NCBI RefSeq assembly: GCF_921293095.1
Contig: NC_060254.1
Coordinates: 111,190,917-111,254,916, forward strand
Direction: 5' to 3'
From: Ischnura elegans
Taxonomy: Eukaryota; Arthropoda; Insecta; Odonata; Coenagrionidae
Length of the DNA: 64,000 bases
In this document: positions 5,254 to 34,906 of the stretch, one piece after another
Layout: every line of letters starts with the position of its first letter
Position numbering within the stretch: the first letter of the stretch is position 1
Made by a program: the position numbers and the translations under genes
The notes under the pieces: model-generated
Database searches by the model: none
Seen by the model: only the letters and a program-made list of their open reading frames with translations
Told to the model about the DNA's origin: nothing

Positions 5254-5527
5254 GCCGGAAGATGTTGGTGAATACTGCTGTCGGGTCAAGCAGAAGTTCT
5301 TGCTGGAGGGAAGCATTAACGAAGTTACGTCAGATCCTGTTGAGGTCGATTTTGTGCCCGAGCCTCCTATAATCACGGAACAGCCAGAGCAGTTGGTAGC
5401 CTGTCTGGAAGGATCTACTGCCGTCATTTCATTCTCACTGGCAAAGTCACCGGCTGCAGGAGATGTCCATCTTCAGTGGTTCAGGGACAATGAAGTTCTA
5501 GAGGGCTGCAATGATAGAGAGTTGGAG
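5254..5527 (+). CDS. MALT1: MALT1 exon a: end of first Ig-like and start of second Ig-like domain
   Basis: The exon starts with the last base of a split codon after an A-rich acceptor and ends in phase 0 before GTAGGT. It opens with PEDVGEYCCRV, the D-x-G-x-Y-x-C signature near the end of an Ig fold. After a PEPPIITEQP linker it starts the next Ig fold, with Trp in LQWFRD. At the place where the first Ig cysteine is expected the sequence reads AVISFSLA, without Cys. The only nearby Cys is about ten residues earlier (LVACLEG). The acceptor has a poor pyrimidine tract, so the exact 5' edge is less sure than the reading frame. Confidence 0.85.
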
Positions 5528-8500
5528 GTAGGTGACTTGAAGCTTTTTCACCTGTTGCTCAGTTTATTTTCAATGAGAGCAAAATCAAATACATATGTAC
5601 ATATAAGTGTTGAAAGTGTACGTTTAGCTTCTCAATTAATTGTAAATTGTGGTTGATGAAACATTTGTCACTAAAGAAAGAAGTATGTATTTCTTAAAGA
5701 GAGAGATGTAAGATAATGGCACATGAATAAGCAGTTACAGCAGATTTTACAGTCTTTCCCTGTGGAGTTTTGATGACACGCACGGCATATCTATCAAAGA
5801 TGTGTATCTACATAATACTCAATTTTAATTGCAATTAAGGAATCCTTTTTCCAAGTTATGAGTACCGTATTTAGTTAGTGCTTCACTTGAAATTCCTAGA
5901 AAATTGGTACTTTTTATGTATTGTAGCATGTAGTAGTATGTAACTGTGTATCCAAAGTAAAATTTCATTATAAGAGTAGCAAGTGAACAAGAAAAATTAT
6001 GGTGTAATTATTTTTTCTCTATCTTTTTTCACTATCTTGTTATTTGTAACAAACTCAAGTGGACATAATTCCAGCGTAGATTGTGGGCCACCACTCTCGG
6101 AATTGATTTTTACTTCGACATAATTTCTTTTACAAAAATGGCCCTGTGTAGCCAAGCGTAAAACAGTATGGGGTCATCTGCATGTACACACAAAGAGGAA
6201 AATTCCATGTGAAAATACAAACTGCCCTAATTCTATATTAAATCATGACTGTGAAGTTGTCATTCACCATGCAGAATGCTATGTTAAAAACACATGCAGG
6301 CAAGCTTCTTAAAACACAATTTATTTTATGTATAAGTTACATGTCTAAAAAAGTAAGACTACCTAGTACTAGTTGTTAAGAATCCAGGTATAGTTTCAGA
6401 GCTCTTGAAAAGAGACAATCATAGCTTTCAAAGGTGTCAACATTTGTAATATGTAATACATATGTATCTAGTGGTCATTATAGATGGGAATAATTTTGAT
6501 GGGGCAGAAATGATAAAAAGGAGAGAGAGTTCTGTGGGAAAATGATTATTGGTGGGCCCTGCAGAAACTCTTGAAAAGAAAAACCCCATCAAACTAAACC
6601 AAATCACAGCTCTACAAGAGGATAATATTACCTGTTGTCTCGTGTGGATTATTAGGTAGTTTAGATACATAGAAAATATCCGAAAAGAGATACTCGACTC
6701 CCGATCTTTAAAAACAAACTCTGTCATATGCAATGTTTTTCCGTATAAGGTGAACAACAGACGAAAGGTAATTCTAGAGAAGAGTAATATAGAACTTAAG
6801 GTGCTGTACTGAGATCCTGATACCATTACCTAAATCAAAAGCAGAAGGCTTTGTTTGGCAGGAGGCATCAGCAGGCTAGAGCCATCTTCTCTCAGGAACT
6901 CTCTACTTAGAATGGTGGCAGAAATTTTTCTACAAGCCTGAAGACCAAGGCTATGCTGGGGATACCCAGTGCTAAAGGGTCAAATGATGAAATTTCACAC
7001 CAGGGCAATTATAGGACCATGAGAGGGGCCGAAGAGTTATCGGAGAAGCCAAAAATCTGCTTAGGTTTTTAGGTCTTAGTTGCTGCAAAGGCTTCTGTGG
7101 TGTGATGGTAATGAAGGCTGCATTTTTCTGAATTTCACCATGTCGTCGTTTTCATGGAGACAACAGTTTCTCCTAAATTCCTGCAGGCATCTTCAGGTCG
7201 AAGTGCTTGATGCGGTGTTTTGGTCGTTGTTATATAGGCAGCCCGGTGGTGTGTGTTGGTGCTGATTGGTCGCCTTGCATCCAGTGACATGGGGCTATGT
7301 TACGAAGAGTCTCTTCTCTTTTAGGTCTTAGTACGATTTGAAATGTAGGCTTTTGCAGCGAAATTCATTGGTGTCAACGTCTTTCAGAGGCAGCTGCGTA
7401 TTGCGCTTTGTCACGTGAGATTTCTCGGCCATTGCAGGTCTCATCATCAGGCGATGAATGAGAAGTTTGGAAAAGGCTGTCAATTAATATATTTGTCAAT
7501 CCTCCTCACTGGAGTAGTCGAGGGGGAAGGGTGATGCCGACGACAGAGGAACTCTCAGCCCCATCCTTAAGCAGTGAGCAAACTCTCCCTTGTTGTGGTG
7601 CAGCGGGCAGGTGAATAATCATAGCCAACACCATACTGGAAACATCGTCTCCGTTCTTCTGTCGTCAGCGTCACCCTTCCTTCTCCCCGAGTAATCACTC
7701 CGGTGGATTGAGGAGGGTTGATGAGTATATTAATTGACACTGCTCCTTTTTCCATTCGCCTGATGACGCAACCTGCAATGGCCGCGAAAGCGCGCATGAC
7801 AATGTAGAATACGCTGCTGCTCCCAAAAGCCGTTGACACTTAGTACCTTTTGTTCACTACTTTTGTCTTTATCAACGCTAGGAATCCATTTTAAATCCTA
7901 CCATGCTTATAAAATGTTTGTTATTCTTGCATATATAATTGTGAATTATTGAAAATCATAGACAAAATTTTTTTTTTTTTAATGGGAAGTGGATTTGTGG
8001 GGTGAAGGGTTGGAGGGTTGAGTCTAATGGCTGAGTGTGCTCCGTTGAGTTGAGTCCTAAATCGGAGGGACAACAACAAAAAAAGAGCTCCTCAGAGAGA
8101 AGTGTAATGTATTCTCATGGTACTTGCAGCATGGAAAACATTTTGCATTCGTTGGTGCCAGCAGAGAAGGTATAGTCTTGGCTGTTGTCTCAAATATTCA
8201 AAATTTCAAAGGGTCTTTTCAAATTGATTAAAAAGAAAAAGTTGCAAGTGACTAGGTCAGATAAGCACAAGGGGTGGTCAAGAGCAATGATCGAGCTTTT
8301 TGTCAAAAACCCACGAATTCTGATGGCTAAATGGGTAATATAGTTGTCAGTCTGGAAAAACCATTCATAAATCCTCTATATTTCTGGGATTATGCAAAGG
8401 ATTGCATCCCTAACGTTACATTTCAGAACTTCAGTGTAGTAATTCCAGTTTGCCATGGACCCTTTGAGGAAGTATTTGTGGTGACCAATACCCTAAGTAG

Positions 8501-11500
8501 GGAAAAATTTGCTATTCAAACTGTCCTAGTATTTGTCCCACATACCTCGTGAAGTGGATGCAAATGGTCAAGCAATGCAATGCTCTGAATATTTTCCCTC
8601 CTTTTTTTTCCTTAAACCCTGTGGAGAAAAATTTTTGTGGCTACTCTGCACATTAAGTGAGCAAGTAAAGGCAACTTACCAATCCACAAAAATTAGTGGA
8701 GAATACGTTCGGATAAATATAATAATTAATGAAAAATGTGATGTAAGCAATTTTGGATTATGTAAACTTTATTTCCATGCGACAACTGATTTTAATTCTA
8801 TAAATTAATCTCTTTTTCATATAAGGTCGATTATAATAAGTTGATCTATGTAGAGACATTGAAATTTTTGAAGTATGAAGTAGTACATGAATTATAATGC
8901 CCTATATCTATTTAATTGCATGTCGACAGATCAGTGACCTATCTGAAGCAGATGAAGGAGAATATAGATGCTACATCACTTGTAAGTGTGCGGAACTCTG
9001 GACTGAAACTGCCACTATTAAGGTAATTACGAATTGTGAGATATCTTTTTTGTGACGAAAGGCTAGAAATTAAATAGTTATATAATTTCCTTGATGCTGT
9101 TCATATCAATTTCATCTCATAATAACTGTGCAATTTCTTTATATTCCAGGTATACCGGCCTCCAGACATGGGTAAGGTTCTGAATAATAGGGTGGTTTCC
9201 AATTATTTTTTTATTGCCTAAATCGAAAGATTATTACTCCTGGAGTACGTATTTCACGCTTTTAGATTTTTAAATGACGATATCTATTTTTCGCGATTAA
9301 ATGAAAAGTGAAAAATTTCAAGCGCGCGAAAACGCGACGCGTAAGTAGGAATTATGGGAAAAAGTCCGTGTGACGCATTTCTGGCTCCCCCTCCCGCCTT
9401 GTGAGGTGGCCTTGGGAGAGGCTCTGAGCGCTGATACGACGCAGGATGCTAGCGGGTAGCTGAGTACCATGCTATCTGGTAGCGCTTGGCTTAAAAAAGG
9501 TTTATTAATACCTTATCAAACGAAGAAAACTTTCCGACCTTAGCCAGTTTTAATTGGTTATTATTAAGACGTGTTTCCCTGAGCTCTGTGCCTCTTGCAT
9601 GCATTGGTATCCTCAGACGATGTATAACTCCTATCCTCTCGTGTAGAAACTAGGTCCCTGTGACGTCACGTGGAGTGGCATCGCATGGGCGCCAATCTGG
9701 CCTTTTTCAAATGAGGATAAAATTTGGCCCTTGCCATTCGTCTAAACCGGTATTTCTAAAACCAAATAATTTGTGTATTATGAATACACTAATGGTGGGT
9801 AACGAATCGCAATCAATGCCTTTCGTTTTCTTTGATGAAGGAAACTACCCTATTGTAGGTTATCATCAAAGGTACAATTAATATATATTAGAGATGTGCG
9901 AATAGTATCCGCGAATACTCGAATACCTCGAATACTAGAAAGTATTCGATATTCGAGGTTTCGAATAGTTATGCGAAAAGTACCGCCTCGAATAATTTGA
10001 ATTTCGCGTCATACACTGTCGCACGCACGTCGTTGGTAGTTGACTCGGAAAAATGTAGAGAACTGTAGTCATTTAGTGCTCGCAGTGCCGTTTTACGCAA
10101 GTTGACGAATTACATCAAATTCGTGGATTTTAGCGGTGAAAAGAGTTCGACGAGGGGAACCGAAAATGGTCGGGTGAAAAAATCCGAAAATCCCCGATTC
10201 CCCCCACCATGAGAACCTCAGTGCCGCGGGATAGCAACCTTAGGGGCTTAGGGCATTTCCCACGATCCGCTATCCCCCTCCATTCAGCACTCGCCTCACC
10301 CACTCTGATGCTTTCCTCTTCTCCGAAATCAAACAAAAGGTCCCAGCTCGCGCAGGGATCGCATTACGAAGACCCCTGCTTCGAAAAAAATATAGAGTTA
10401 CGAGAACAATAAAAACGTGTTTCACGCCCTCCCCCCTTTTCTCACCCACTGACCTTTTTCTTGCTACCTGCTTCGAAGTTCTCCATTTCTGGAGGTCAAC
10501 TGCTGTGAGAGTACCGTGGGATACTTACATTAGCGCATTTCCCAAGATCCGGTATCCCTCTCCATTCAGCACTAGCCCCCCCCCCCCCCCCCTCTGAGGC
10601 TTTCCTCTTCTTCGAAATAAAAAAGAAGGTCACAGCTCGCGCAGGGATCATATTACGAAGACCTTAGCTTCGAAAAAATACCAAGTTACAAGAGAAAAAT
10701 AGAAACGTGTTTCGGGCCCTCCCTTTTCTCCCCCACTGACCTTTTTTTTCCTACCAGCTTCGAAGTTCCCCATTTCTGTGGAGGTCAACCGCTGCATGAG
10801 TCATCTATTAGCACAAAAGGTGTCTAAGAATGACTTTCGTCAATTGATGTTACACCTTTATTGAATTGAAATATTAGTAATGTGCGCGTGATTTCAAAAA
10901 GAATAAGACCAAACACGACGCATTTCTGAGTTTATTTAAGCATTTTACGCAAAGAAATAAATGTCAAAATACGACGGAGACTTAGCATTCTGGCAAAACT
11001 CGATATGAGCAGCAGAGCTTCTCGGAAGTTGATGCGGTATTTTTTTCCGAAAACATATATCAAGTTACAATTTATGAGTGGTGCTATAAATCTTTATTGT
11101 TACAGTCCCAGACAAAGGGATATTTTCTCAGAATATTTGGTTTCTCCCTGATAGCAATTCCAATTCATCTTCTTATCTCTTGAGAACTCCCAAAGATGGA
11201 CTGAAAATAATTGAAGAAAATCCGGTGGAAAAGAGCTTGTATGTTGCAAAATGCCTCAGATTGTCAGCTAGCACTTGGCAGCAGGAGTGGGGGTAAAGCG
11301 ATGTTAGTTGAATTAATCATATGCCCAATTTTTTCCATAAAATAAAAATATTCATTAATCAGCTAAATTCCTGTTCGAATCATTTAAAGGAAATCAAAAT
11401 TACTCCCCAAAATCTTGTGTTGCCTGCTGCATAGGCAACCGAGTCAGACATTCCAGCATTCATCATTTAGTATTCGAGGTACCTATTCGAAATTCGAGGT

Positions 11501-14500
11501 ATTCGAATATTCGAGCAATGATTTAATATTCGAATTCGAGAAATCTGCTATTCGACCCATCTCTAATATATATATATATATATAATATGCTGCTGCTAAA
11601 TAGGAAGAATGTATTAAATATAAATCCAGTGGCTGGGTTCAAAGCAGTGACTCTATTTTGGTGTTCAAAATATAAGTTAATTACTTAACTATTATAGTTT
11701 ACTAAATGAAGCCTCAAGGCAAATGTGTTTTTACCATACTGCATCATAGCAATGATAGCAATCACCCAAAATTAATTCTTCAGGGGCAAATCTCAATGTG
11801 ATGATTATAGAATCGAAAGAAAAATCCTTAATTTGCCAGAAAAGTTGTCAATTTTCCGACGCAAGCGAATGAAAGCTGCATATGTGAGGCATGGGGTGGA
11901 GGAAAGTGACTGCCGTGGACACAATATGCCTAGCTACTTGGTTGCCACTTGAGACCCAGCTTAGTGTGAGCCCAAGCTCTTCCTTGGCCGCTAAGATCAT
12001 CCCTTCCCCATCCCCTGTGCGAGGTCGCCCAATGCTATTTGCAGTGTTTTTTCCAAAAATTTATTTGTTGCTTATCGTGTAAGTCTAAAGCTAGAAATTT
12101 GTTCTTCTTTCTTTTTGCTTATAACATGGAAATTTCAAATAAGTTCTAGCATTAATATCAACAGAGTTCCAAATTAGTCAATATGAAATAGAAATATAAT
12201 AAATCGGTCAATATGAGCGTTAGAAGGTGGGTTACATTTTCTTCATGCTTAGAAGAACACAAGGAATTCATTTTATGTACTAAAAAATCAATGGGAACAA
12301 CAAATATTTCTTTATATAAAACACGGCTATTTCACTCAGTTGACCGTGGTCTGGCACAGCGGCTGAGGAAAAGGATCGGCGTCCCACTGAGCTGGGTCTC
12401 AACTTTGCGATGGGTGCGAACATATGCCTTCTGTTGAGGCGAGAGAGCTTTGTTCAGGGGAGTGCAAAAAACTATCCAGGGACTCATAGCATGGAAGAGT
12501 TTCCCTCCACAAGGCTCTGGCACGAAAGGGTTAATACCCATTGTAGACTTTCATTATGTTAGCTCTGCACAAACGAGCGACAAAGATGGGAAAACTTTAT
12601 TTTCTTTGTCCAGAGATAAGACGGCTTGATGTCGGCAATCAGTGAATGACTAGTTAACAGGAAGAAGCAGAAAGAAAGGCCTCACATTGATTGTGATAAA
12701 TAATTGACAACTCCCTCCGTGACTCCAGAGGCGGATACGAATGGGGGGCACGCACCCCTCTCGCAGGGCTGCTGCCTGCATTGCCAAACATTGCAGAACC
12801 ACAATTGTAACTTTTTTATATCATTAGATAGCACTGTCTTGAATATGCTTATAATCAGTTAAAATAAACTTAAATCTTAAATTTTGCATGTAACTTGATA
12901 TTATGGATTATGATGGAAAAAATAAATGACGAAGATTGTAAAAGGGAGAAAATTCGATGATAGGTAAAGGTTTGTTGTTAGGAAGCTGAGTGCAGTATAT
13001 TTTGCCAAAGATCAGCCTTTCCTTTTTGATACAATAGATACAGAAGTGGATCTTGGGGAGGGGGGGAGGGTGCCTACCACAGGGCGCTAAAAATATTGAC
13101 AAGATTTTTAATACGGTTATCATTTCGTTTGCTTCGTTTTGTGTATTGCGGAGCCTCAATCATTTAATTTAATATTTACAACTTTCATATCAAAATAATG
13201 AGAATATTTTCTACGGCAATTGTTGTATTTTGTTATAAATTTCAAAGATGAGAAGACCTATCAGACCTTTGTGCCCACCAGAAAAAAATCCTGGATCTAC
13301 CCCTTAATGGATATCAATACAAATTAATCATGTGGGTTGCCATCATTGCCATAATATGATTTAATTAATTAAACTCATTTCAATTTGGATGATTATCATT
13401 TAAGGGAAAATGTTGTATTCTCTTTGTACAATAAATTTTAGCTGTATACTTACATGTCAAGGGCGGTCTGGCCATGTTGGCTGGTCTAGGGGGGCCCCAC
13501 AATTTTGGTACCCATCATGAGGGGTATGTGAAGTTGTAATAAAGAAATACTCAGATTGTTTGAACCAAACTTTTTTTTTGCCATTATAAAATTCTAAGTT
13601 TTCATCAATTTGCTTTATTTACAACATACTCATTGTGAAAAGGTGATATAATATAAATAAAATAAGGGATTCAGATGAATAAAGAGAACCTTATGATTTT
13701 GTGAAAGGGTTTTTGCAAAAGCTTATTTTAGTTTTTTTTTAGATTTGTGTCATGAAATTTTATGCTCTGTGAAATTCACCCATTGTACAGTATATTTTTC
13801 TGACGAAATTGCTATTTCTTTTCACTTTTAAGAGCCAGAATAGGTAGTTTCAAAATCCATTTGTGGACATCCAATTCCTAAAATTTTCAGGGATAGCCCC
13901 CATCATGAGCCTGCCCTTAATATGTATTTTGGAAAGCTGAAAATATTTCTTGGAAATTGAAACTCTTATATCTTCTGTCATGTGATTTAATGTGTCTCTT
14001 TTTCTATCTTTAGCCAAGGGAAAATTTGCATTATTAATTGGAAATGCTGAGTACACCAATCGTAGTCCTTTGAAGTCTCCAAGTAATGATGTTGCCACCT
14101 TAGCAAAAATTTTCAAAAAGCTCCAGTTCAAAGTTATAGCATTGAAGGATTTATCGGTAATAGAAATGAAGAATGCATTGAAGAATTTTTGTAAACTGTT
14201 ACCTCGTGGTGCATATGGTAAGTAATTTTTTTTTAATGCGTTGAAAGCCCTTAACAGGCTCATGGTTTTTATCAGTAACCTTCTCTTTATAATTAATGCC
14301 AATGAAAGCACCCAAATTTATGCATTATCAAAATAAATATGCTGTACTATTGTGATATTGACATACATTGACTCACTTTATCAAAAAATATACCTCTACA
14401 ATGTTGGCTACCTTAGGTAGCATATTAAATTCTATGTACTACATATATCTATATTACTATTATCATTGGCGTAAATTTAATGAAATCATAAACATGCTGG

Positions 14501-17500
14501 TATTTTAAAATTTTCAAGTTGATATTGCTCCTGTCCAGTACCATAACTGGGAATATGCTTTTGGGGACCTGGGGGGATGACTCCCCCCACCCCAAGGCAA
14601 CAGAGGATCCAGGCAGTGGCGTAGCCAGGGGGTCCAGATCCCCCCCGAAATATAAAAACAATTATTTTTCTTCATAAAACAATACAAAATATTGAAATAT
14701 CATGGATTTACAAAATATTTCTTTAACATATTAAGTTTTTTCGATTATGAAAAGTGTTAAAATTAGTTTAAAACCCTCTACTTAGTCCCCTGTTTTTAAA
14801 GAAAAATTCCCCCTGGTTTTGGACCTTCTCCCAAACAAAATTCCTGGCTACGCCACTGGATCCAGGTTGGTATGCAGTCTCAAGTAAAAATTTCTCCCTT
14901 GCAACTTGACTGAAACTGGGCTGAAACTACCTTGAAACTGACTGCCTTGCTTCTATGCTGAAACTGCATTGAAATTGAAACAAACCAGTGGAGTTTGGAA
15001 GAGGGATGGCAGTGCAGTAGCAGTGCAATTAAGAACTCCAGCTTCTCCAATGAAACTCCCTTGGCTGACTAAACTGAAACTCCCTTGGCTAGCTACACTG
15101 AAACTCCCTTGGCCACTAACTAGACTGAAACTCCCTTGGCTACCAGCTAGACTGAAACTCCCTTGGCCAGCTAGACTGAAATTCCATTGGATAGCTAGGC
15201 TGAAACTCCCTTGTATGCCAGGCTGAAACTCCCTTGTTTGGCTGAATACATTTCCCCTGCCCAATCCATTAAAATTCCCTTGTCAAATCATATGAAACAA
15301 AGTCAATTAACAACTTGCGCAACCCAGCCAACAGTGGATGATCACATAACAGATTTCTCCCACAATTTTGCATGCATGATAAGAGATAAAGGGTGGATAG
15401 GTAATAATAATAATAATAATTTTTTATTCACCGAACTGGCAATATACATTGCATGGTTTCGTCACAAAAATCACTATGATACAAATTACATAAATACAAT
15501 AATACAAATTACATAGAATCATTTAAATAATCGCTAATATCATAATAGGCTTTACCTGCTAAAAAATTACATAATTTAACTTTGAATAGGGAAGGGTGAC
15601 AGTTTTTCAATTCAGATGGAAGTTTATTAAAAATGATGGATGGAGTGTGATGAGGTCCCTTGAGAGCTAGAGATAGATGGTGACTTTTGAGGTGAACGTC
15701 ACATTTTGAGCGAGTGTGGTAGTCATGCCATTCATGATTCCTTGGAAAATGCTCAGGATGCATTTTAACAAAAGTGGCACAATTCAAGATAAAAATGGAG
15801 GGAAGTGTTAATATTTTTAGGTCCAAAAAGATCGGTTTACCAGGAGTCCTCTTAGGCACTTGAACCATAGCTTTCAATGCTTGCTTCTGTAGAGAAAATA
15901 ATTTTTTTGCATGGTGTGAAATTCCCCAGAACATAATACCATAAGATATGTGAGCATGAACATTAGCATGGTAGATAAGTTTGAGGGTAGAAAGAGATAG
16001 AAATGGGGCCAGCCTTCTAAGCATAAAAATACCAGTGCTAACTCGATTCATGATGGCTTCAATGTGTGGTGTCCATTTAAGGTCGTCTGAAACCAGAAGA
16101 CCTAAAAATTTAACACAGTTACTTTGGGTAATGGGCTCATTCATCAGATTAAGTTGGTGATTAATTATAGGTGTGACACTCTTAGGGTGGAAATCCAAGA
16201 AAACAGTTTTGTTAATGTTAATTGATAAATGGTTGGTATTGCACCACTCAGCCATCCTGGAAATTGAAGTATTGACAGAATTTACCAGATCAGAAATATT
16301 TCTAGAATGTGACAGACATGAAGTATCATCAGCATATAACACAAGGTGATTGCGATCAACAATAGTTATTGTAACTGCAATGACCACAACATTTTTCAAG
16401 ACACAATTTATTAGAACATGAAAATACATCAATAAATTAATAACTGTTAAAAGCACTTACAAAAATATTCCAAATGAAAGAAGTCATGGAAGTTAGATGC
16501 TCCTGAAAAAGAGAAGAAACATGACTGATGAAAGTCACAAACGACTTAACTCAAAATCAAATTAGCAAAATTGCACATGAAAAACTCTCCTTTACTTGGC
16601 TTATTAGTTCTATGGTGCATTAATGTGAACCATTCAAATTATCGAAAGCAAAACTTAAATTATCACTGAGGAAGCATGCGCTTTGCATCATAGTTAAATG
16701 AAAAACGAAGCGATGACTCGTTACTTAGGCTATGTGTGAACTCCAAACGAAAACCACATAAGATTCCAAAACATTCAGCAGTAACTAATAAGTATAAGCA
16801 GTAAATATACATTGCACTATAGCGAAACATACCCGCATTCCTTATTTCTTCGAAAGCCCGCTCGAGCTCACGGAGTCCGGTCCTCCGCAGGATGACTAAC
16901 GGTCGGCGCGGCATCCGCGGCATTGATGACCGGTCGGTGTATTATCCTCCTCGTCCGGGGTATCCATGAGGCAGGAAAAGTGGACGGCAGCCGCCAACGC
17001 GTTGAAAGAAGAATTCGTTATTGGCTGCATGACCCCCGAAAAAGGAGCTTGAAATCCTTAAACGTGCCTGGATTAAAACACGAAATCAATGTCAACGTTC
17101 CCATGGCTAAACATGGAAGGAATAAACATGCCATCAGAGAAGTTAAAACGCTTACCTCCAATTATGACTGCAGTCACCACCACCGACCTCGTTCTCCCCT
17201 TCACCTTAATTTCGATTAATTCTTGCCGTTAACAAACGTCGAAGTACCGGGAAAATATTTATGCCATCAATCTTTTCATGCCAAAACCCACGCTCACCAC
17301 TCGTCTTTCGCTCCTAGCAAGTTGAGAGAAATAACGGCAACCGACAGCTTGACGCGCGGGAAAAGGTATACGTGTTGCCAAAAGCTAAATTAAAAAAATA
17401 CATTGCCACTGAAAACATGGGTTGCGTATATGTCCGGTAGAAGGGTTCCGTATGTTGGCAAATCTTACAATGGGTAGCACACGCGCAGCAAGGGAGAAGC

Positions 17501-20500
17501 AGTTCAAATTCATGAGGGAGAGGGAATACCCAAATGCTGCAGCAGCTCTGTGGCAGGGCAGTTAAGACATTCAGCAAGAGAGATTCAGTGGAGTTATTAA
17601 GTTGGCCTGGCCTTTGAGCCTACAGTCCAGCTCAGTGCCAGTAGAGCTCATGTGCAGCAAGGGAGAAGCAGTTCAAATCCATGAGGGAGAGGGGATACCC
17701 AATGCTGCCGCAGCTCTGTGGCAAGGCAGTAAAGACATGCGGCAAGAGAGACGCAGTGGTGTCATAAATCCGGCCTGGCCTGAGCCTATTGTCCAGTTCA
17801 GTATCAGTGGGGCACATATGCAGCAAGGGAGAAGCAGTTCAAATTCAATGGACTTGCAAGGGAGAATGGCATCAGAGTTTCAGTTGAGTGCTCTTTTTCT
17901 TGTTGAGGACAAGGCAGTGCAGTGCAGTGACAAGGTTGTTTCAAGGCAGTTTGAGCGCATTCAGTGGAGTTTCAGCCCAGAATCAGCTGTTTCAAGGGAG
18001 AAATTTTTACTTGAGGTGACACAACTCACTGCCATGATATTAATAAATGATCTTAAACTTTAAGCAGATGCAGTTATTACCGTATAAGTGCGTGTAAGAG
18101 GCGCACCTTTTTTCCCAGATATTGCAGCCGAAAATGGGGGTGCGCCTCTTACACAAACTTCTTACCTTCCCCCCCTCCCCTTCACCGGTTGCAAGTTCAA
18201 GGGGAACTGAGTGGCCTTGGTTTTCAGCCTGAGTAAGTCATCTGAAACCCTGGGTCAAAATCAAGCAGCAGGCAGGGGAGTTTCTCCCTTAGTGACGTAT
18301 TTTTAAAATGCTCCTGTTTGAATTTCTTGCAAGCATCGCGCCGTCACGTCGGTACCCCAGAGGTGAACATTAAAAAGATCGCGCGGGGTGATTCGCTCCG
18401 GAGCGCGCGCTAAATTTATTGCCACGAGTGGGCATCCCGCGGCATTTATACTGCATATAGTAATATTGGTGTCACAACCTGCGGTTGAAAAAATTCGAAT
18501 GAGTGTGCTCATTGTTGGACTTAATGGTGGATAGAAGAAATCGGAAATGCTTATAAGTGAAGAGCGCTGAAGGAGAGGTCTAGGGGAAGAGGGCTCCCTC
18601 CCCTCCGTATTTAAAGCTACGAGCGAAGGAGCAAGGGAAGAACACGTCCGATCTTGCATGTGACGTCGTTGCCTTTAAAGCGAAGGGGCGAAGGCGCAGC
18701 AATGTTATATACGCAGTTTGCGTTGCCTGAGTTTCCAGTCCGTCTCGTCTTGTTTGAATGCGCTTATGCTACGCTTGTTTCTTCCGAAATTGTGCTGTTT
18801 GGACTATGTTGAATATTAGTAGCCTTATTTCAGCTATAAATCTTTGTGTCAATCAATTAGAGCTCAAAAAACTTAAATGCTGAAAGATATACGTCGCGTT
18901 AGGTCTAATTCTTTTTAGAACCTCGTGCGTGTCATACAATTGCTGAAAGATATCGAGATATCTTCGAGCTCAGAAGGTGACTCACGTAGCATTTGACCTC
19001 CAGAAACTCGGAGAATTGAACCTGGTAGACCGAAAAAGGTCAGTTGGTGGAATGGGGTAGGGATGAAACACGTTTCCATTGTTCCCCTGTAACTTGATAT
19101 TTTCCTGTGGAGTCTCGGAAAGGAAAAAAACGGCAGAGGCATTAGCTGATGGAGAGCCGAGTGTAGTTCCGTTAGGCCCCTTGCACACACACCGATTTTG
19201 GACGGCCGGTAAAATATTGGCCGATATTTTACCGGCGAAGCGATGCTTGCACACACGCCGGATTTTTACCGGTCAAACGATACGTTGCTAAGTTTTTGAG
19301 CCGGCGTCGGCGATCCACAGTGACAATAGCCTGCAGCTAACCGGCATTTTGCCGGTGCCGGCGTGTGGTCGGTACGTGTGCAAGCTCCAATGCTCTCCCA
19401 TTGTTCACTATTGGAATGTGGACGGCCGATATTTTACCGGCCGTCCAAAATCGGTGCGTGTGCAAGGGGCCTTAAATCTACGTGGTTATTATCCTACGGC
19501 GCTGAGATTGCCCCGATTGTTGTTCAATCTCTTGGGAAAGCTCATGCCATTTGCCTGTCGTGTTTTGCCTTAAAATTTTCCACGGCTGCAATTCTATTGC
19601 AATACTCCTGCGAGAGCTTTTAAACAAAATTGTTCGTGAGTAGGACAAGCAACGTAGAGCGATGGCGTATGCAAAGAGAGGATCGGAACTCTTTCTACTC
19701 CCTCTTATGCCGCCGCAGTTATCAAAATTTCCTCTTTCAAATAGTACTGAAAGAGGACATTTCGATAATTGTCAAAATTCCAGGCATATGTCTGCAACAC
19801 CGCACGATAGGATAAAAAAAATGTCGCAAAATTTTTTTTCTTTATAGCTTCGATCCTCAAAATAGGGGTGCGCCTCTTACACAAGCTTATACGGTATATG
19901 TTAAAACTAGACAGTTTTAAATATTATTTTCTCTGAAGCTTTGGGGGGAGGGATCTGTCCCCCTCAAACCCCCCAATAGTTCCGTCACTGCACATGTCTG
20001 GTGAGAAAGCAATTGAGTACCTAATTAGTATCAATGCTATAATCATGGCTGCATAGTGTAGATTTTCATTGCCACAGTTGTAAGTACATATGTAGTTGTA
20101 AGATCACATAGAGAGCGAATTTAGAGGTGGATATTGAAGTGCTCATGCACCTGCAGAGTTCAGGGCCTATTTCAAATTCAGACTGTGTTTTACCCGCATT
20201 TTTAAAGTGTTTGATATTAAATTTTTATTGACTAATTGCTCTGGCTCCCAAAAATGTTGATGCAGTGGAAAATAACCCAAATGCCTTTTCTGTATATGTG
20301 CCATTCTTCTTGCCTGGTGGGTTAATTTCTATCACGACTGACTGCTGCTTTCCGTAATCTCTTTTACAGTTATTTTCTACTTTGTGGGTCATGGATTTCA
20401 ACTCCAGCAGGAAAAATACATGCTTCCCATCGATGCTCCCTCAAACTATCTACGTTCCCAATGTCTTTGTGAAGCTGAGGTAATCAAAGAGTTGTATGCA

Positions 20501-23500
20501 ACCAATCCTCGACTTTTAGTGATAATCCTGGACATGTGCCTCAAAGCTCCAGATGTGTGAGTATTTTTCTATAAATTGGTCACCCTGCAATTATGTAAGT
20601 TTTGTTTATTTATAATCATAATTTCCAAAAATAATAAGTGCAGTAACAAGGGCATACCCAGGATAATACCTAGGGGGGGCAAGCCAGGCGATTACAGTAC
20701 AAATATTTATTGACAGTAAATTATTTCCTCCCTCACGTTAAAATAAATATGCCATCATTTTAGCATTTTATGGTGTTTTATTTGTTTTCTGTCCTTTTTT
20801 CCTCTCTTCTTTATTAAATGAATATTCCTTTGGAGCTTTGAAGGCGTCAGACCTTACCCCCACTTTGTTTTCCCTTGTGGAGACCACCCTCAGTGTGTGC
20901 ATACATATTTGCTGAGGAGGCATCTATCTTTTACACCCTTTTTTTCCATATATGTAGTTACATTTCATTATGCCTGCCAAAAGCATTGATGAATTTAACT
21001 TTCAGCATTTTCCAACAGAAATATACAGCTGATTCATTAAAATAACAGTTTACTGGTTCATGTGAATTGACAACAAAATGTTGATATAGGCAACCCACAT
21101 GTCAACCAAGGAAACATTCTGGCTATGTGCCTGCTTGGGAAGATTTCTGGTTAATATACCGGAATAGCCACCTGAATATACATTCGAAAAAAATTCAGAG
21201 CTTTTAATCGACTGATGTGGGTGTAGACATCCTACTTTGGCAGACCCACTTTGATCTCATTGAAATTTTGCATATGTAAGCATACTTTTGAGGCTTTGTA
21301 ACTTAATTGGTAGTGGGAGGTTAAAATTTTTAAAATAAAAAAATAAGGACATCCTAACACTCGTATATGAAGTAAACATTATTGATTTGAAGTATATATT
21401 TAATCATGGATTAAGAGTAAGCACCTTTTTCTGAATTTGAACAGTATCCAATGCCTTCTAAGGGTGGCACAAGATGTAATTAAATGGGCTTATGACATTG
21501 GCTTGCCTTTGTAAAATGTGACATCTGGGTTTTGGAGCTTGAGCTGGTCTGATCTCCACTTGCTTACTGTGAGACGGAGCTGAGTGGGCTCTGATTATTT
21601 GGGGAAATGTAACTCCTGATATCCAAATTGTTATTACTGCCAAATATACTTGCCCACTTTATATGATGACGTGGAAGCATTTGTCTTGGACGTGATGTAT
21701 CAGCAATTGTGATACATACTTGATAGTTAAAAATATGTATACATCAGAAGTAATTGAGGGATAAGAGGATCTTTAGAAAATGTGCATTGAAGACAAATCA
21801 GCATCATGATTCATTTTTTAAGTTACTGATTTTTTCTGTTGAATGAAGGCTTGTCACAGTGGTCACTTTCTCAAAAGCATGAAAAGTCTGACTAAGTCAT
21901 AAAATTCACTGTTAGGAAGGCCATGGAATGTGGGGGAAAATGACAGAAATATCTATAAAAATCATATTAAGAAATTGATTTGTCCTAATGAATAAAAAAG
22001 GACCACGTACCACCTATACCCATCGATGAAGATGTAACTTGCTAAGCAACGATTTGACACTGACGATGAACTGCATGCTGGTGTGCCTAAACCAGCGATT
22101 GAACTTGCCGGCGGCAGATTTCTACAGATAGGGTATTGAAAAGCTTGCACCATGTCACGATAAATGCCTTAATTTAAATGGCAATTATGGATAAAAATAT
22201 CCAATGAGTTAAACTTCAAAGTTTATATGAATAAAATTGTTATTTTCACTTTGTTTATTTTTTGTTACTTTCTGGATACCCCGTTTATGAAAGTAACTTT
22301 TCATTTTTCTCAAATAGAAATGAAAACCCAGATATTTACAAGGAAGTGCCCACAACACATGAATATACTCCTGGAAGAAATCTAGTGAAGGGATATGCCA
22401 CCACCAGTAACCTTGGTGCATACGAGCGGTCTTCTGAAACCAATGGAATCTATGCAAAGCACCTGGCCCAAGCTCTTTTATCATATAGTGATTGTGGTAT
22501 CGTCACGGTTCTGGAGAAAGTCAGTGAAGGTATTTATAGATTTTCTTGCTGGTATAAGCTAATTGTGAACAAGGATTTGATATCTTTTGAGAGTAGACAC
22601 AGAACTCAGTTACAGAAGTAAAATCCACAATAGGGTGGTTTCCTATTATTTTTTTATTGCCTAAATTGAAAGATTATTACTCCTGGAGTACGTATTTCGC
22701 GCTTTTAGATTTTTAAATGACGATATCTATTTTTCGCGATTAAATGAAAAGTGAAAATTTTCAAGCGCGCAAAAACGGGACGCGTAAGTAGGAAAGTCCG
22801 TGCGACGCATTTCTGGTTCCCCCTCTCTCCTTGTGAAGTGACCTTGATCGAGGCTCTGAGCGCTGATAGGACGCAGGATGCTAGCGGATAGCTGAGTACC
22901 TTGCTGAATGGTAGCGCTTGGCTTAAAAAAGGTTTATTAATACCTTATCAAACGAAGAAAACTTTCCGACCTTAGCCAGTTTTAATAGGTGATTATTAAG
23001 ACATGTTTCCCTGAGCTCTGTGCCTCATGCATGCATTGGTAACCTCAGACGAGGTATAACTCCTATCCTCTCGTGTAGAAACTAGGTCCCTGTGACGTCA
23101 CGCGGAGTGGAATCGCATGGGTGCCAATCTGGCCTTTTTCAAATGAGGATAAAATTTGACCCTTGCCATTCGTCTAAACCGGTATTTCTAAAACCAAATA
23201 ATTTGTGTATTATGAATACACTAATGGTGGGTAACGAATCGCAATCAATGCCTATCGTTTTCTTTGATGAAGGAAACTACCCTATTATTCTGGATTCTCT
23301 TATTTTTCCTTGAAGTAGATGGCCTCGGTGCTGTCATCCTGTTGTGTTTTAATTTGCTAATTGTACCACATAAATATGTTTTGGAAGTGGGTTTGTGATG
23401 AATCGATGGATTTTTTTAGCTCGGTCTCATAGATGGCATTGGCAATCCTTTCAGCTGTCGGTGGAGAGCATCCGGATGCGGCTCAGAAGCAGATGCCGAG

Positions 23501-26500
23501 CGTATCACACAATTTCAGTCGTGCTAGTGACCTCAGTCTCGTAGAGGACATGGGTGGTAAGTATCATTGATGGGAAGCAGGGGCGCAGCTAAGAATTAAG
23601 GCTAGGGTGGGTTTCAGGCGCAACTACATATTATATTTGGGGTGTGGGGGGATTGCATACCCACCAGGGTAAGCGGGAGTTCCCGGGGGGGGGGGGGTCC
23701 TCCAGAAAAATTTTAAGATTAATGGTTCCAAATGGCGAGTTTTATGGTTTTCTGAGGGATATTTGATTAATCCTAATACTATTCTATAAGTAATACTAAT
23801 CCATAAAGTAAAATGGATTAAATTTAAAAATTGCGTCCCTCGCTGTGCCTCTGATGGGAAGAGTATGGAGGAAATGTGCCATATTTTCCTGCAAAAAGAA
23901 ATCATGTTGCTTCTCTGCCTCCTCACGGTTGAAGTAAATAATGTGTCATTACCATTTGAATGCTCAAACTCTGAGAGATTCACCTACGAGTGATCATTTG
24001 TGTGCATACCCGAAAGTCAAATGTTCGTGGTGCGGCTGTGAAATTCTCATGGCTCAAGTTCGAGGCTCTTGTCAGCTATTGCTTGTTATACACTCTTATC
24101 TTACACTCTTTGCTGATTTTCGCTTCCTCAGAGAGTTCTTTTGTTGGATATAGCGGGTTTTGTCCTCCGCTCTGAAATTTGATGCTTGTGTGTCTGATGG
24201 CGCAATTTATGAGAGGGGTAATTCAAACAGAGTTATATGCATGTATATTTTTAAATTCACTATCCCATGTGGAGAATGGTCATCTGTCCTAAATATTTTT
24301 TCACTGGCCCTGAGAGAGGAGTGATGAATGATGTGCGGCCGTAATAGCTGAGGAAGTGTGTAGGAAGAAAAGGATTGAGGAAAACAATTTTTTGTGAATA
24401 TTATTATTATTCTGTATTACTTATTACTAGGGACATGCAAAAGGTGGGGTTATTTTATAGCCAAAAGTGGTGTTATTTTTCTACAAAAGCGATGTTATTT
24501 TGCCCTGAAATCGGTGTTATTTTAACGGCAAAGTAATTTATGTTGATTGAGGGCAGTGGCCCACCCATTGCCTTAAATTTAGGATATTATTGATTGGGAA
24601 TAATTAAAGCAATAATATACATGGAGTATTGACTGAATTAACCTATTTTACATATTTATCCTTCGCGTATACATATATCTAGCTTACTTAGAGAGAAATT
24701 ACTTTTAAATGTCTGTAATTTCAAATGAAATATTGCTATTGTGATCAAGTTGTCATCTTTTACATTTGTTCTCTTATCTGTTAACACAGCATTATAGCAG
24801 GAAATAAATCTTTCTCAGTCCATGTTTGCAGAAGTGATCCAAATTGCTTAAAGGCACTTAGATGCAAAGGATGTCTCAGACATTTGAGCTCCTGGATTGC
24901 TTTAATTACATCCACTGAACCCCGGGAATTTTGCTTTTGTAGTAATTTCTGTAATCCTCCCAACCCCAACATCAACTTCTCTGTCTCCATTGATTCCAGG
25001 CCATGAATTTTTTGTTTTTAAGTCAGGGTTCATGTCTGTAGACGGAACTTCTTGGGGATCAAAAACTGAGATCTTTTCAAATATGTACCTATTTTTCTGC
25101 TTAGGTCTTCTACCATAAGAGAACTAAGTTTGGTTGACGCTTTTTCAGCCATCTGCATAGGTATTGACTTTACAGCAGCTGCTTTAGAGGTTTTCATGTT
25201 TTGCAGATTTAATAAGTGGTTTTATCTAAAAAAGTACTCTTATGAATTTTCTTGAGGCTCATTTTTAACTTCTTTAACTCTTTCAAAATGGTGGAGTTCT
25301 CTCCTTAACATGAATGCGGGACTGCGCTCCATGAGACTCCTTGGTCCCCTCAGTATGGAGCATTTATGTTGGACATCTGTTAAGAAAGGTCTTGCAGATA
25401 ATCAAACACTCTCAACACCAACCTTTTCTGATCCTTCCTAGTGGGCATTTTGCATTATCTTGGACTCTGAGGGTAGTTGGTCTCCCTCCTTTCGTGGTTT
25501 ACCACCCTACCAGCATCATTGGTTCGCTGTCAACTCATGCTTTGTTTATGTGAATTAGCTATATGGATGATTGTTGCTTGCACGTAAATTGCAGACTTCC
25601 AATTGAATTCCTCGATTTATTCTGAGAATTTTAAAATTTTGAATGAAGCTCTACCGTCAGCATTAACGAATTTAATGCCTTAACAATTTCCATGTTGATT
25701 TTATAGTGAAATCGAGATATAAGTTAATATTTATGGTAGAATTTCATTTAAAAATTGTAAACTCTGCCAAAAGACAAAGAATTCAATTCTTCGTTTATAT
25801 TTTTTTTAAGAAAGAACCATATATTTATTTTGCAAACTAACTGAATGAACAATTGTATTATTGCGGTCCCTTGCCAAAAAGAGGGGTAATAAGAGACGAG
25901 GGTCTAGGTTCATGCTTCCGGATTTCGGCAGTTACAGATTTTGCCAGTCCATGGTGTTGGCCTGTGTTGGGTCCCGAAACTAAGACTTTGCGAACCCACG
26001 AATGTCATAAAAGGAGGAGAGCAAGAAAATGTATTTTCGGCATTAGGCCTGCGTAGGAAAATCTCAGACAAAAATTTTCGCCTTTCGTCTCCCGGGTCAA
26101 GAAACGTCCTGCCACATATTTTCGTCATTAGCAGCGAAAGGGTTATCTCTTTATAGAATGTGAGTATTTGGATAGTTTGAACCCTCCAGTAATTTTATTA
26201 AGTCAACCATCTGATTCCCATGGCATTTTGGCTACTTTGTGGACATCGTGAATGCGGTTTAGACATCCTCCGGACAAACAAGTCGCCTTATTTCCTCGAG
26301 TGTGTTTCTTTGTGGAAATCATGAATTTTCTCCAATTCATGGGCGATTTTCACCAACTCAGACGCAAATTTCATAATTTTTTTCCTTCTGCTCTACATGA
26401 AATTGTTTTTCGAGGCGTATATTTAAGCCGTAATTTTTTCACGGCATTGGCCGCTCACCGACGCGACTAATTTCCGCGGCCGCCGGCCGCCGTTCCCGCC

Positions 26501-29500
26501 ACAGCGCCGTGAAATCCAGAGAGTCGTCTTGTCGGAAAGTGGCCTGAATTTTACGGCGCTGTGCCGGGAACGGCGGCCGGCGATAAGTCGTTTTGGCTTA
26601 AAGCTGCTACAATGTAGCTCCGTGAGTATTTCACGGAATAGACGGCGCACAGCCACTTTTGGCCGCTTTCAGGCTTTTGCTTTGCTCCGGCCGTCGTCAA
26701 CGGCACGGCACTGTGCTTTCAAATAACCATTGGTCTCAATGCATGTCTTCAAGCGAGTCGAATCGCGCAGTTGACGGCACGGCGTTGTTGACGGTCAGCA
26801 AGGCAAGGTTCAATCCGGCCCGGCGGTGCGCCGTTATGGCGTGAAATACACATCGTGCTATCTTGAGGCTGCTTTCAAACGCGACGACTTTTCGCCGGCC
26901 GCCGTTCACGGCACGGTTCCGTGAAATTCAGGCCACTTTCAAACGAGACATCTCACGGCGCTGAGCCGTGAACGGCGGCCCATGGAAATTCGTCGCGTCG
27001 AAAAGCGGCCAATGCAGGGAAAATATTACGGCTTAAATGTGCGCCTCGAAAAACAATTTCGTGGGAGGAGCATGAGCAGAAGAAAAAAATTGTGAAAATC
27101 GCGTCTGAGTTAGTGAAAATCGCCCATGAATTGGAGAAAATCGCAATTAATACGAAATTCGCGTATTCGCAGGAAAACGCCGGAAATCGCGTATTTCGCG
27201 GGAAAATCCCGGAATTCGCGTTAAAATTCGCGTTATCGCATTTGCGACTTTTGCATGTCCCTACTTATTACACAGATGAGCAACTACCCATCAAATATCA
27301 AGAAAATTTATGCATAAAACATCAAGAGAACCAAGTTCTATTCAAGAAATAAATTTTTTTAATAAAGGAAAAAAATCTCATGTCAATTTAAGGTTGATCT
27401 GCAAACACTGTTTAAACTGCATATTCTTCATGGCAAAAATATCAATTTCAGGAGAAAGATCGTTTTCTTCTGTCATAATCTCAAAGGAATCCCACAGGAA
27501 ATTGTTTTTGCGGGCAATATATTAGTTATTCCCTCTTTAGTAACACTTACACTCTTTTTGTCTGTTGTTTAGAAATGATTTTATCCAATTATGTACATGG
27601 AGTACATAATGCCAAGTTGGTGAAGTTTAAACAGTAGTATGGTACATGGTGTTTGGCACAATCAAAGGCCTTGGAGAAATCAAATAGCATTACAAGAGAT
27701 TCCTATTTACTGTCTAGGTCAGACAATATTTTGTAGATATGTACTATGGTAGGTAGCAAAGGTAGTGGACATGGATCCATGCTGGGAGCTGGATAACTGG
27801 TTGTGAGATTTCAGATAATTAAAACAACTGACAAAAAAGCCTGTGAAGAAAATCAAGAAAGCTCTGGCAGTGTATTTCTTGGCTCTTACACTAACTTGAT
27901 AACTCTCATTTCTGACACATTCCTATTGGTATGTTTATATGTATTTGCTATTTAAGGTATGGCATTTTTGTAACACTTAAATCATTTGTAATATACATAG
28001 TCATACTGAATTTTGGGGTTGTAAATTGGCTTATATTTTAACAGTGAATGATACATATTATGTATCAGGGGTTTAATAGATGAGACAGTGCGGGAACAGT
28101 ATTTCTAGGCTGGTTTTTCTGTTAAACTATCTCCAATATCTGAAGCTATTGGATATCAGGAAAGCATAGAATACAGCTAAACTAAATTTCCCCTTTCACT
28201 CAATATCACAAAAAGTTTTGATATTACCACCCAGGAATTTTTTTTTACAACATGACTGCATATTGTGTTCAGATGTGGTTATCAGTTCTATTTGGATTCT
28301 GACTTTATTATGTACCATTATTTGTTGTTTGTGTGTACATTTCAGGGGATGATGATGCGGCTGCAATATATCATCATTTGACCCAACTTCCTTCTCCAAT
28401 TTTACTCAATTTCAAGAAAGTGGACTTGAGTGCTATTGTCTTCTTGAAGCTACAGAAAGAAACCTTTTTAAATTCCCTGGAAGTGCACATTAAAGGAGCT
28501 AAGCATTGGAATGTTAGCTTTTTGGTCCAAAACCTAGTAAGTGGAATGAGATATTTTTTTGTGTACCTAGATTATTTCAATAGAAATTTACCTTTCCCTT
28601 CGTCTGTCAAATGCAAAAACGATCCCCATGGTAAATATTGGTGTTATTGTACGTATACAGTGCACTCCCGATCATGCCAATGGGCTAATTAACGATGGGG
28701 AGGAGAGACGGCACGAATAATCGGAAAACACGGATAACCCAAACTTTCACTTATATGTCTTGCAATGCTCATAATTTACCTAAAACATACAATACATTAT
28801 TATTAATACAGTTATTCTGTTATTTTAGTGTGCGTTACATCATTAAATCTCGAAGATTGTGCACGTAAGCCCCAGACATAAGGAACTCCAATCGTCGGTC
28901 ACAGGCTGGTTCAGGGAAAGACTCCACAAACAAGAAAATCAGCACACAAGAAACAATTGTCAAAAATTACGAGTTATTTTCAATCAATATCTATTTGAAG
29001 TAGAAGTATTCAAAATCAGAAGTATTACAGAAAACAACGATGATAACTAAAGATCCCATAGGAAACATTACCAAACTTAGTACAAGCTGTATAATTTTGC
29101 TAAAATCACCCATGTCAGTCACGGCATCCGTCTACCACGAGCGCCCGAGCAAAAGAGGCCTAGCGTACTCCGAAACGAGTCAGGGTGGAGGGGAGGGATT
29201 TTGCCAAGGAGTGGAGGGGTAAAAAGGGCGATGTTCAATCAGCTGCGAATCTGCCCCCTAAAATCGCCCCTGTTGACTCGCAGCTCCACCAAGCATCACT
29301 CATCCGGCCGGGGAAGGAGGGGGGAACAGTGTGCAGGCTGGAATTTTCCCCTCAATCTTCTGGGTTGGAGACATCACTGGGAGATTCATTGGAATTCATG
29401 GAGGGGAGAAACATAGTGGGGTGAGGTGTTGGAGGGAGAGAGAGTTGTGATAGGACTATGGTAATACTTCTCACTCCAAACTGCATACTTGGGCCTCAGC

Positions 29501-30956: not shown

Positions 30957-32698
30957 CAATTGCATTTATGCATCATTTTCATCAGAGGAATGTTCATCTT
31001 GTATTTTTTGAGAATGCATTATGTATGTTTTTAATTTTGTCTGTACAGTTCTTATAAATGTTTCCATATTTTGATAATAACTTTGCTTCTACATATAATT
31101 CATTACACCAATATTTATAACTGTTACGAGTTAAGCGAGAAAAATGCTTGCTGAAATTCTCAAGATTAGTGAATATTAAGTGGCAATTTACCTTCAGCCC
31201 TAGGTTCCATCAAAGCAAGTCATTGAAGAATCCCATTAACTTGTGACTTGAAAATTCTTGTCAGGCATGTCCTGAAAATTTTTTTGGAGTCATTTGAAGC
31301 AAGGTAGTGCAGTATTTGGAAGGGTAACATAAATTTTGCTCCTCGTTAGAGAATTCATGCATCCTTGATTTGGTTATCTACGGAAAAATCTGTGGAACAT
31401 TCTTCATCATAGAATGTTCTTCCATTTCTGTAAGGACAGCAAAACTTGATTTCGCTAATGTTAGACAGCACCGCCTTATTGACATCGGTAGTTTCTTTCA
31501 TCCCAATCCTTCCTCATCCCTACCCAGGAGGCTTTGTCAGGCTCCATCCTTTTTCTTTCCTTTCCACCCCTATCCCTCCAGAGGAGTACCTACGTAAGTC
31601 TCCGACTTGGTTCCCAGCCCTCAGGAATGTCACCCCAAGAGCCCAACCACGGTTCTCCATTCCAACACTTGATTTGGTTTGACCTCTACATTTTTAATGA
31701 TGCGTGCTATTTAATCCCAGCAGAACTCATCGTGTAAGTTCAGTCTAAGGGTAAGATATGCATTCAAGACATTTCAACAGTAGTGAGTGCCTGTTCAAGA
31801 TGGGATACCTAATCGGATAGCATCTTCCATGATGCTGTCAAGTGAAAGGCTTAAAAATACGACAAGGAACTTACGATGACAACTTAAATGACAGTAGAAG
31901 CCATTTCACTACTGTTTTCTATCATAATCCTTCGCATAATCTCTTAAGATCATTTCAAGAGAAACTGTTATTCCAGTGAGAAATCTATCATCATCCAGAG
32001 CTAAATCTATTCCTCTGAAAGAATTTATCTCAGATTCAAAGTATGACATATCTCAAAAGGTAAGACTTACCTTTTCCTCAATACAAACCAAGTACACGAC
32101 AACACAGCATGGAAGAGGATTTATGACAAATTTTACATCCCCTTTCAATAACTCTGGATACGTCCATAAGCTTATGCAATCCAATTTTCATTAAATACCC
32201 ATCTGCTACCATGAAATGAAGAAGATCCACTCAATCCTTAACTTTGATACTATTTGGAACCTTCTTTTTTTCCAAAGGGCAGAATACTAGGAAGTCATTC
32301 ATAAAACAAGTGAAAACCAAAGACCTAAGGTTTTCTGTCTTAAAGATAGCATCAAATTAATTCTTAATTTTTCTGAAACACCATTTTACCCTAATAAATG
32401 TCCAAGACAAAATTAACCCAAGTTTTTCATGCTAAAAAAATGCATTAAAAGTAAACAAAACAGAGTGAAAATGTGTATTTTCTGCATAAAAAACAATAAC
32501 TATCTCCTTTACAATCCAATGTAAGTCAGAATAACTCATTCAGTTAAATAATCATCACAGTCTAGCTAAAGCAAAACATGAAAACAGTATCTTACAGAGA
32601 ACGATATTTCTTTTTCATTAACACTGCAACCCTACTCTGAAACTGGTAAAACCTTTATCATCTGAGTAAGTCCTCCAATCATAGAGTACTCTTTGTCG
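30957..32698. other. Convergent intergenic region, MALT1 and MAIP1 3' UTRs
   Basis: 1.74 kb between the two stop codons. A clear canonical poly(A) signal for either gene was not settled. A pyrimidine-rich stretch lies at 31500-31580. No further gene is seen. Confidence 0.6.
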
Positions 32699-32946
32699 TC
32701 ATGAATTGATGAAGTCAGCTGGCTTGAAATGATTCACAACATTGATCTTCCAGCTAGATTGTTCTTCCTTCCCCTTAGTAAACTCACGAATAAACCTGTA
32801 GTTGCAGATACATATGCGATGCTGATACTCAGGAGACATACCAACATTTAAGGGCGGAGTAACGTTCTGAGCCTTCATTTCCTTGAGGCCTAAGAGCACA
32901 TGATAGCACATGGTGATTTCAACAAAGCGACGCTGCGGCTTATCAC
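32699..32946 (-). CDS. MAIP1: MAIP1 exon 3: end of Tim44-like domain and stop
   Basis: Acceptor ATTTTTAG. It encodes DKPQRRFVEITMCYHVLL through NHFKPADFINS and TGA. The last strand and helix (YRFIREFTKG ... WKINVVNHF) match the family's C-terminus. Confidence 0.9.
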
Positions 32947-34798: not shown

Positions 34799-34906
34799 TT
34801 CCAATCTGGAATTTTGTATGTTTTCCAACAGATGGCATTCACTACCTAGCGATTTCATTGGCCATTTGCGTTACCTTGCAAGTCAAAAACTACAGAAGCA
34901 GCCATC
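34799..34906. promoter_or_regulatory. Shared divergent promoter of MAIP1 and CRTC
   Basis: Only 108 bp separate the preferred MAIP1 start codon (34798, - strand) from the CRTC start codon (34907, + strand). No TATA box is evident. Both 5' UTRs must start within this gap or overlap each other. That the two genes share one promoter is inferred from this spacing. Confidence 0.6.

What the first reader, a model, noticed from the sequence alone, without database searches (positions are those of the whole stretch)
14014..22529. Paracaspase with a fully conserved catalytic and Arg-binding pocket
MALT1 is missing from well-studied flies. Here His and Cys are 49 residues apart, Asp to His is 50 residues (both identical to human), and counterparts of Asp365, Asp462 and Glu500 are all present. 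This predicts an active Arg-specific protease, so NF-kB-type paracaspase signalling may be retained in this lineage.
Basis: partly seen in the sequence, partly recalled or inferred. Interest (0 to 1): 0.7.

Follow-up and report, generated by a model that had tools for sequence, protein, structure and literature searches.

The report
Damselfly MALT1-type paracaspase gene
This is an intact damselfly copy of MALT1, an immune-signalling protease that is missing from fruit flies but already known from other arthropods, so it is a useful data point more than a surprise.

Summary
The window lies on chromosome 9 of the blue-tailed damselfly Ischnura elegans (Odonata, not a fly). Exons 14014-14217, 20370-20556 and 22318-22529 encode a paracaspase domain 79/200 identical to human MALT1, with the Asp365, His415, Asp462, Cys464 and Glu500 counterparts and the same Asp-His (50) and His-Cys (49) spacings. 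MALT1 is the best match among solved structures (7e-34); caspase-2 follows at 0.03. These are three of 13 exons. Three exons 1.7-2.5 kb upstream of the window add a death-domain-like region and half of the first Ig domain. No second copy was found.

It is a type 1 paracaspase, although a third Ig domain could not be confirmed by sequence. The NF-kB reading is only partly supported: printed work says insects lack Bcl10, I found no Bcl10-like CARD (weak test), and the TRAF6 site and regulatory residues of human Ig3 are not recognisable. A shrimp MALT1 does bind TRAF6 and support NF-kB output, so the route is plausible in arthropods. Arthropod type 1 paracaspases are already in print. New member of a known kind, modest interest.

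The parts
5254..5527 (+). exon 4: end of Ig1 and first part of Ig2 (residues 167-258)
   Evidence: AG/GT, phase-consistent; genome search places it here at 1.3e-55 and nowhere else; Ig families over Pfam cut-off in the joined protein
8930..9022 (+). exon 5: end of Ig2
   Evidence: AG/GT, in phase; weak I-set C-terminal match in this frame, E 0.17; Ig families over cut-off in the joined protein
9150..9171 (+). exon 6: 22-nt linker exon between Ig2 and the catalytic domain
   Evidence: all five complete open joins printed use it; not found by the genome search, probably because it is so short
14014..14217 (+). exon 7: catalytic domain, first part, with the Asp365 counterpart (D322)
   Evidence: own-genome Peptidase_C14 hit 3.3e-8
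20370..20556 (+). exon 8: catalytic His (H372), Asp462 counterpart (D419), catalytic Cys (C421)
22318..22529 (+). exon 9: catalytic domain, C-terminal part, with the Glu500 counterpart (E463)
23455..23556 (+). exon 10: end of catalytic domain / stretch towards Ig3
   Evidence: splice sites and phase; no significant similarity of its own
28346..28536 (+). exon 11: presumed Ig3, first part
   Evidence: splice sites and phase; no significant similarity to human Ig3
30645..30716 (+). exon 12: presumed Ig3, middle (contains LQKLK, as in human Ig3)
30798..30956 (+). exon 13: end of presumed Ig3 and TGA stop
   Evidence: one polyadenylation-like hexamer (TATAAA) at 31053

Best explanation
The gene is the type 1 paracaspase (MALT1 homologue) of the damselfly Ischnura elegans, apparently single copy. 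It is intact, with 13 exons and 671 residues in the order death domain, Ig, Ig, caspase-like protease and a presumed third Ig. Likely mechanism: the N-terminal death domain and Ig pair join an oligomeric signalling complex, which dimerises the protease domain; the Cys-His dyad then cleaves after Arg, held by the acidic S1 pocket. Shown here: gene structure, homology, catalytic and pocket residues, no second copy. Inferred: oligomer-driven activation, Arg specificity, expression. Uncertain: the upstream partner (probably not Bcl10) and the output (probably TRAF6/NF-kB as in shrimp, possibly NF-kB-independent as proposed for C. elegans).
For: Identity to MALT1 over caspases. Catalytic and pocket residues at the right spacings. 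Catalytic similarity 79/200 with 0 of 500 shuffles as good; in local alignments Ig1 0/500, Ig2 0/500 and death domain 1/500. Ig_3 and Peptidase_C14 over Pfam cut-offs in the assembled protein. 12 of 12 introns GT-AG with consistent phases and no stop. Genome search with the protein gave 12 matches, covering 12 of 13 exons, all at this locus. Shrimp LvMALT1 has the same domain order and acts through TRAF6/NF-kB (passages).
Against: Ig3 is not supported by sequence: no PDB hit up to E 10, no Pfam hit, and 72 of 500 shuffles reach the local score. The death domain has no MALT1 hit; its best PDB match is the IRAK4 death domain at 0.038, and Pfam Death did not ring. In the N-terminal part non-MALT1 Ig proteins outrank MALT1, which is fourth of 202 sequences matched (60 shown) at 5e-12. 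Exons outside the catalytic region were picked by eye from candidate lists. No transcript evidence was available. Conserved domains did not guarantee MALT1-like activity in several tested homologues, and the oyster one did not induce NF-kB in human cells.
Confidence: 0.85

Rival explanations
1. It is a paracaspase by descent, but acts mainly as a scaffold or in an NF-kB-independent role, with little MALT1-like proteolysis.
For: Staal 2018 reports no MALT1-like activity for lamprey, acorn worm and sea anemone homologues, and a CBM- and NF-kB-independent neuronal role in C. elegans. Human E549 aligns with Ser here, and there is no Trp between the catalytic domain and the LPSP stretch, where human W580 would fall (that alignment is not significant).
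Against: The catalytic dyad and the three S1-pocket acids are kept. The oyster homologue cleaves CYLD at R324. Shrimp MALT1 supports NF-kB output.
Confidence: 0.3
2. The catalytic exons belong to a caspase or a metacaspase-like protein and not to a paracaspase.
For: Pfam files the domain under Peptidase_C14, described as caspase domain.
Against: MALT1 at 7e-34 against caspase-2 at 0.03; no metacaspase among the 18 PDB sequences listed. Ig domains are joined in frame.
Confidence: 0.02
3. It is a decaying pseudogene or an assembly artefact.
For: One intron carries a reverse-transcriptase fragment and there is no transcript evidence here.
Against: 671 residues open across 13 exons with 12 of 12 canonical introns, on a chromosome-level assembly.
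Confidence: 0.03

Closest known systems
Human MALT1 (PCASP1)
   Same: Catalytic Cys-His dyad, Asp365/Asp462/Glu500 counterparts, two Ig domains before the protease, death-domain-like N-terminus
   Different: 671 residues, ending right after the presumed Ig3; Ig3 not recognisable by sequence; the TPEETG TRAF6 site, E549 and W580 are not recognisable
Shrimp LvMALT1 (Litopenaeus vannamei)
   Same: Arthropod; death domain, Ig, Ig, caspase-like domain, Ig (PMC10748089, passages)
   Different: 787 residues and reported to bind TRAF6 through residues 301-787; its sequence was not compared here
C. elegans MALT-1 and other Bcl10-independent type 1 paracaspases
   Same: Ecdysozoan lineage reported to lack Bcl10 and CARD-CC (PMC5978004, abstract and passages)
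   Different: C. elegans is reported to lack NF-kB too; no sequence comparison was made here

Membership tests
type 1 paracaspase (MALT1 family) | Caspase-like domain closest to MALT1 | tested here: met
   phmmer 7e-34 vs caspase-2 0.03; 79/200 identical
type 1 paracaspase (MALT1 family) | Catalytic His and Cys and acidic S1 pocket | tested here: met
   D322, H372, D419, C421, E463
type 1 paracaspase (MALT1 family) | Ig domains N-terminal to the protease | tested here: met
   Ig_3 2.5e-17, two stretches; MALT1 Ig1-2 3k0w at 5e-12, ranked below three other Ig-containing sequences
type 1 paracaspase (MALT1 family) | N-terminal death domain | tested here: inconclusive
   1 of 500 shuffles reaches the score against human DD; IRAK4 death domain at 0.038; Pfam Death silent
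type 1 paracaspase (MALT1 family) | Ig3 C-terminal to the protease | tested here: inconclusive
   Three in-phase exons of the right size and place, but no significant similarity and no PF18703 match in the genome (no positive control)
type 1 paracaspase (MALT1 family) | Cleavage after Arg on dimerisation | not testable with these tools
   needs a biochemical assay
CARD-CC/Bcl10/MALT1 (CBM) complex | Bcl10 in the same genome | tested here: inconclusive
   CARD search found two exons of one gene, RAIDD-like (1.4e-9) over Bcl10 (0.034); the direct Bcl10 query did not complete (eight tries, last); other CARD genes expected in insects (recalled) were not found either, so sensitivity is low
caspase | Best match to caspases | tested here: not met

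The most novel reading that the evidence does not exclude
Odonates keep an active Arg-specific paracaspase that is switched on without Bcl10, through another adaptor (perhaps the RAIDD-like CARD protein found here), and that is regulated differently because the Ig3 control residues have diverged. It would be a Bcl10-free paracaspase route in insects.
Probability: 0.15. Interest if true: 0.55.

Novelty: new member of a known kind. Interest (0 to 1): 0.27.

Why it matters
Fruit flies lack a MALT1 homologue (recalled), so insect NF-kB work has proceeded without it. An intact paracaspase in an early-branching winged insect shows that at least one insect lineage keeps the protease. It offers a simple setting for a question left open by Staal et al. 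2018 (PMC5978004): what activates type 1 paracaspases in animals without Bcl10.

Tried and rejected
Metacaspase or caspase identity: rejected. Pseudogene: rejected on open frame and splicing. Second copy: none at E 0.01 among 16 scored candidates. Upstream exons inside the window before 5254: no candidate listed looked Ig-like to me, whereas one upstream of the window did and rang in Pfam. TRAF6-type motifs (P.E..[FYWDE]): two, at residues 106 and 195, but 16% of 2000 shuffles have two or more, so not counted as evidence. Pfam MALT1_Ig: silent genome-wide, no positive control. A printed odonate MALT1 was sought; none was seen in the listings, of which 47, 52, 53 and 73 show only the first 20, 20, 10 and 12 papers. 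One whitefly paper that holds both MALT1 and BCL10 has them only in its reference list. First passes that failed: one search printed no exon candidates (thresholds too strict), one search tested some wrong borders, read the CARD loci on the wrong strand (put right). Structure prediction was not run, because its stated rule takes only proteins that the DNA gives letter for letter, and this one is spliced.

Not done: no RNA-seq, no comparison with other insects (no eukaryote collection at hand), no test for NF-kB factors, TRAF6 or CYLD in this genome.

Full report
Where it is. The window is G000:C9:111190917-111254916 of a 1,722,721,009-base assembly in 110 contigs. C1 is 170,575,982 bases and C9 115,518,074. 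This matches ioIscEleg1.1, the blue-tailed damselfly Ischnura elegans: 110 scaffolds, longest 170,575,982, chromosome 9 of 115.52 Mb (PMC9975421, passages). The total printed there is 1,722,763,890, a difference of about 43 kb that I did not explain. The organism is an odonate and not a fly.

The catalytic region. Joining 14014-14217, 20370-20556 and 22318-22529 at GT-AG sites gives one open 201-residue frame. Of nine joins tried, seven contained stops and one other stayed open but kept eight extra residues. The ten PDB sequences with E below 0.001 are all MALT1 (best 7e-34); the next is caspase-2 at 0.03. Pfam Peptidase_C14 matches at 4e-25. Aligned to human MALT1, 79 of 200 columns are identical and 0 of 500 shuffles reach the score. 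D322, H372, D419, C421 and E463 fall on human D365, H415, D462, C464 and E500, with spacings of 50 (Asp-His) and 49 (His-Cys) in both. The alignment has a two-residue gap just after E463, so that equivalence is slightly less certain.

The whole gene. Exons were searched with simple hand-set splice scores and picked by eye. In one search five complete joins stayed open, differing only at one junction (donors 5520, 5527 or 5531 with acceptors from 8930 to 8958); I chose 5527/8930, whose donor (GTAGGT) looks most like the consensus and which keeps the Ig2 strand. The final model has 13 exons, 2016 bases and 671 residues; all 12 introns are GT-AG and phases agree throughout. Three lie upstream at L011:7480-7619, 7816-7967 and 8072-8279. 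A search of the genome with the protein scored 16 candidates and returned 12 matches at E 0.01, covering 12 of 13 exons (all but the 22-base one), all at this locus, so no second copy was found at that sensitivity.

Domains. Ig_3 (2.5e-17) and I-set (2.6e-13) match with two stretches each and Peptidase_C14 at 1.9e-28, all over their cut-offs. MALT1 Ig1-Ig2 (3k0w) is found at 5e-12, but fourth among 202 sequences matched, of which 60 were shown. In local alignment to human MALT1, 0/500 shuffles reach the score for Ig1 and for Ig2 (2/500 for Ig2 in the global alignment), and 1/500 for the N-terminal 99 residues against the human death domain. The N-terminal segment's best PDB match is the IRAK4 death domain at 0.038, and Pfam Death does not match. 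So a death domain is likely but not proven. The C-terminal 174 residues match nothing in PDB at E 10 or Pfam; for the stretch after the catalytic domain 72 of 500 shuffles (local) and 85 of 500 (global) reach the score against human Ig3. Place, size, splice phases and an LQKLK stretch shared with human Ig3 suggest a diverged Ig3. Under that weak alignment the TPEETG TRAF6 site is missing and E549 aligns with Ser; there is no Trp between the catalytic domain and the LPSP stretch, where human W580 would fall. Staal et al. state that the TPEETG site is absent in homologues outside jawed vertebrates, so its absence is expected. The importance of E549 is taken from a reference title seen; the role of W580 is recalled.

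Partners. A CARD search of the genome scored two candidates, both exons of one gene on C1. Joined, they match RAIDD at 1.4e-9, caspase-9 and Apaf-1 at about 7e-5, and Bcl10 at 0.034. No Pfam domain was found at E 0.1 in the 10 kb downstream, and no QAC-type caspase active-site motif in the 20 kb downstream, only two chance SHG words. The search should also have found Apaf-1- and Dronc-type CARDs (recalled as general in insects) and found one CARD gene only, so absence of Bcl10 is not shown here. The direct query with human Bcl10 did not complete. The statement that Ecdysozoa, including insects, lack Bcl10 is from PMC5978004 (abstract).

What is known. PMC5978004 (abstract, passages and sections 7-8) describes Bcl10-independent type 1 paracaspases in arthropods and nematodes, says nothing is known of their upstream activators, and shows that conserved domains do not ensure MALT1-like activity: lamprey, acorn worm (poorly expressed) and sea anemone homologues neither induced NF-kB nor cleaved CYLD in human cells, while the oyster protein cleaved CYLD at R324 but did not induce NF-kB. 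PMC10748089 (passages) reports a shrimp MALT1 of 787 residues that binds TRAF6 and supports Dorsal/Relish phosphorylation and antimicrobial peptide expression. An odonate MALT1 was not seen in the listings of the searches made (several lists cut); whether public annotation already names this gene could not be checked.

Judgement. It is a new member of a known kind. The predicted protease activity is likely. Retained NF-kB signalling is plausible by analogy with shrimp but rests on no evidence in this window.

Noticed in passing
window 34913-35008, + strand: Start of a CRTC (TORC_N, 3.3e-16) gene downstream of the paracaspase.
   Followed up: no
window about 32640-34800, - strand: A gene with a weak Tim44-like domain (2.2e-5, below Pfam's cut-off in bits), resembling MAIP1 (recalled), between the paracaspase and CRTC.
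   Followed up: partly
window 15509-16456, - strand: Reverse-transcriptase fragment (RVT_1, 1.2e-5, below cut-off in bits) in the 6.1-kb intron between the first two catalytic exons.
   Followed up: partly
G000:C1:133828771-133829539 (L009, L010), - strand: The only CARD gene found in the genome search; RAIDD-like CARD, no QAC-type caspase motif in the next 20 kb and no Pfam domain in the next 10 kb.
   Followed up: partly
window 15051-15236 and 17485-17844: Tandem repeats (24-base and 168-base units) in the same intron.
   Followed up: no
window 5254-9022 (residues about 204-289, exons 4-5): Ig2 seems to lack the first of the usual two Ig cysteines (ISFSLA where human has LQCVAV), as may be tolerated in a cytoplasmic Ig domain.
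   Followed up: no
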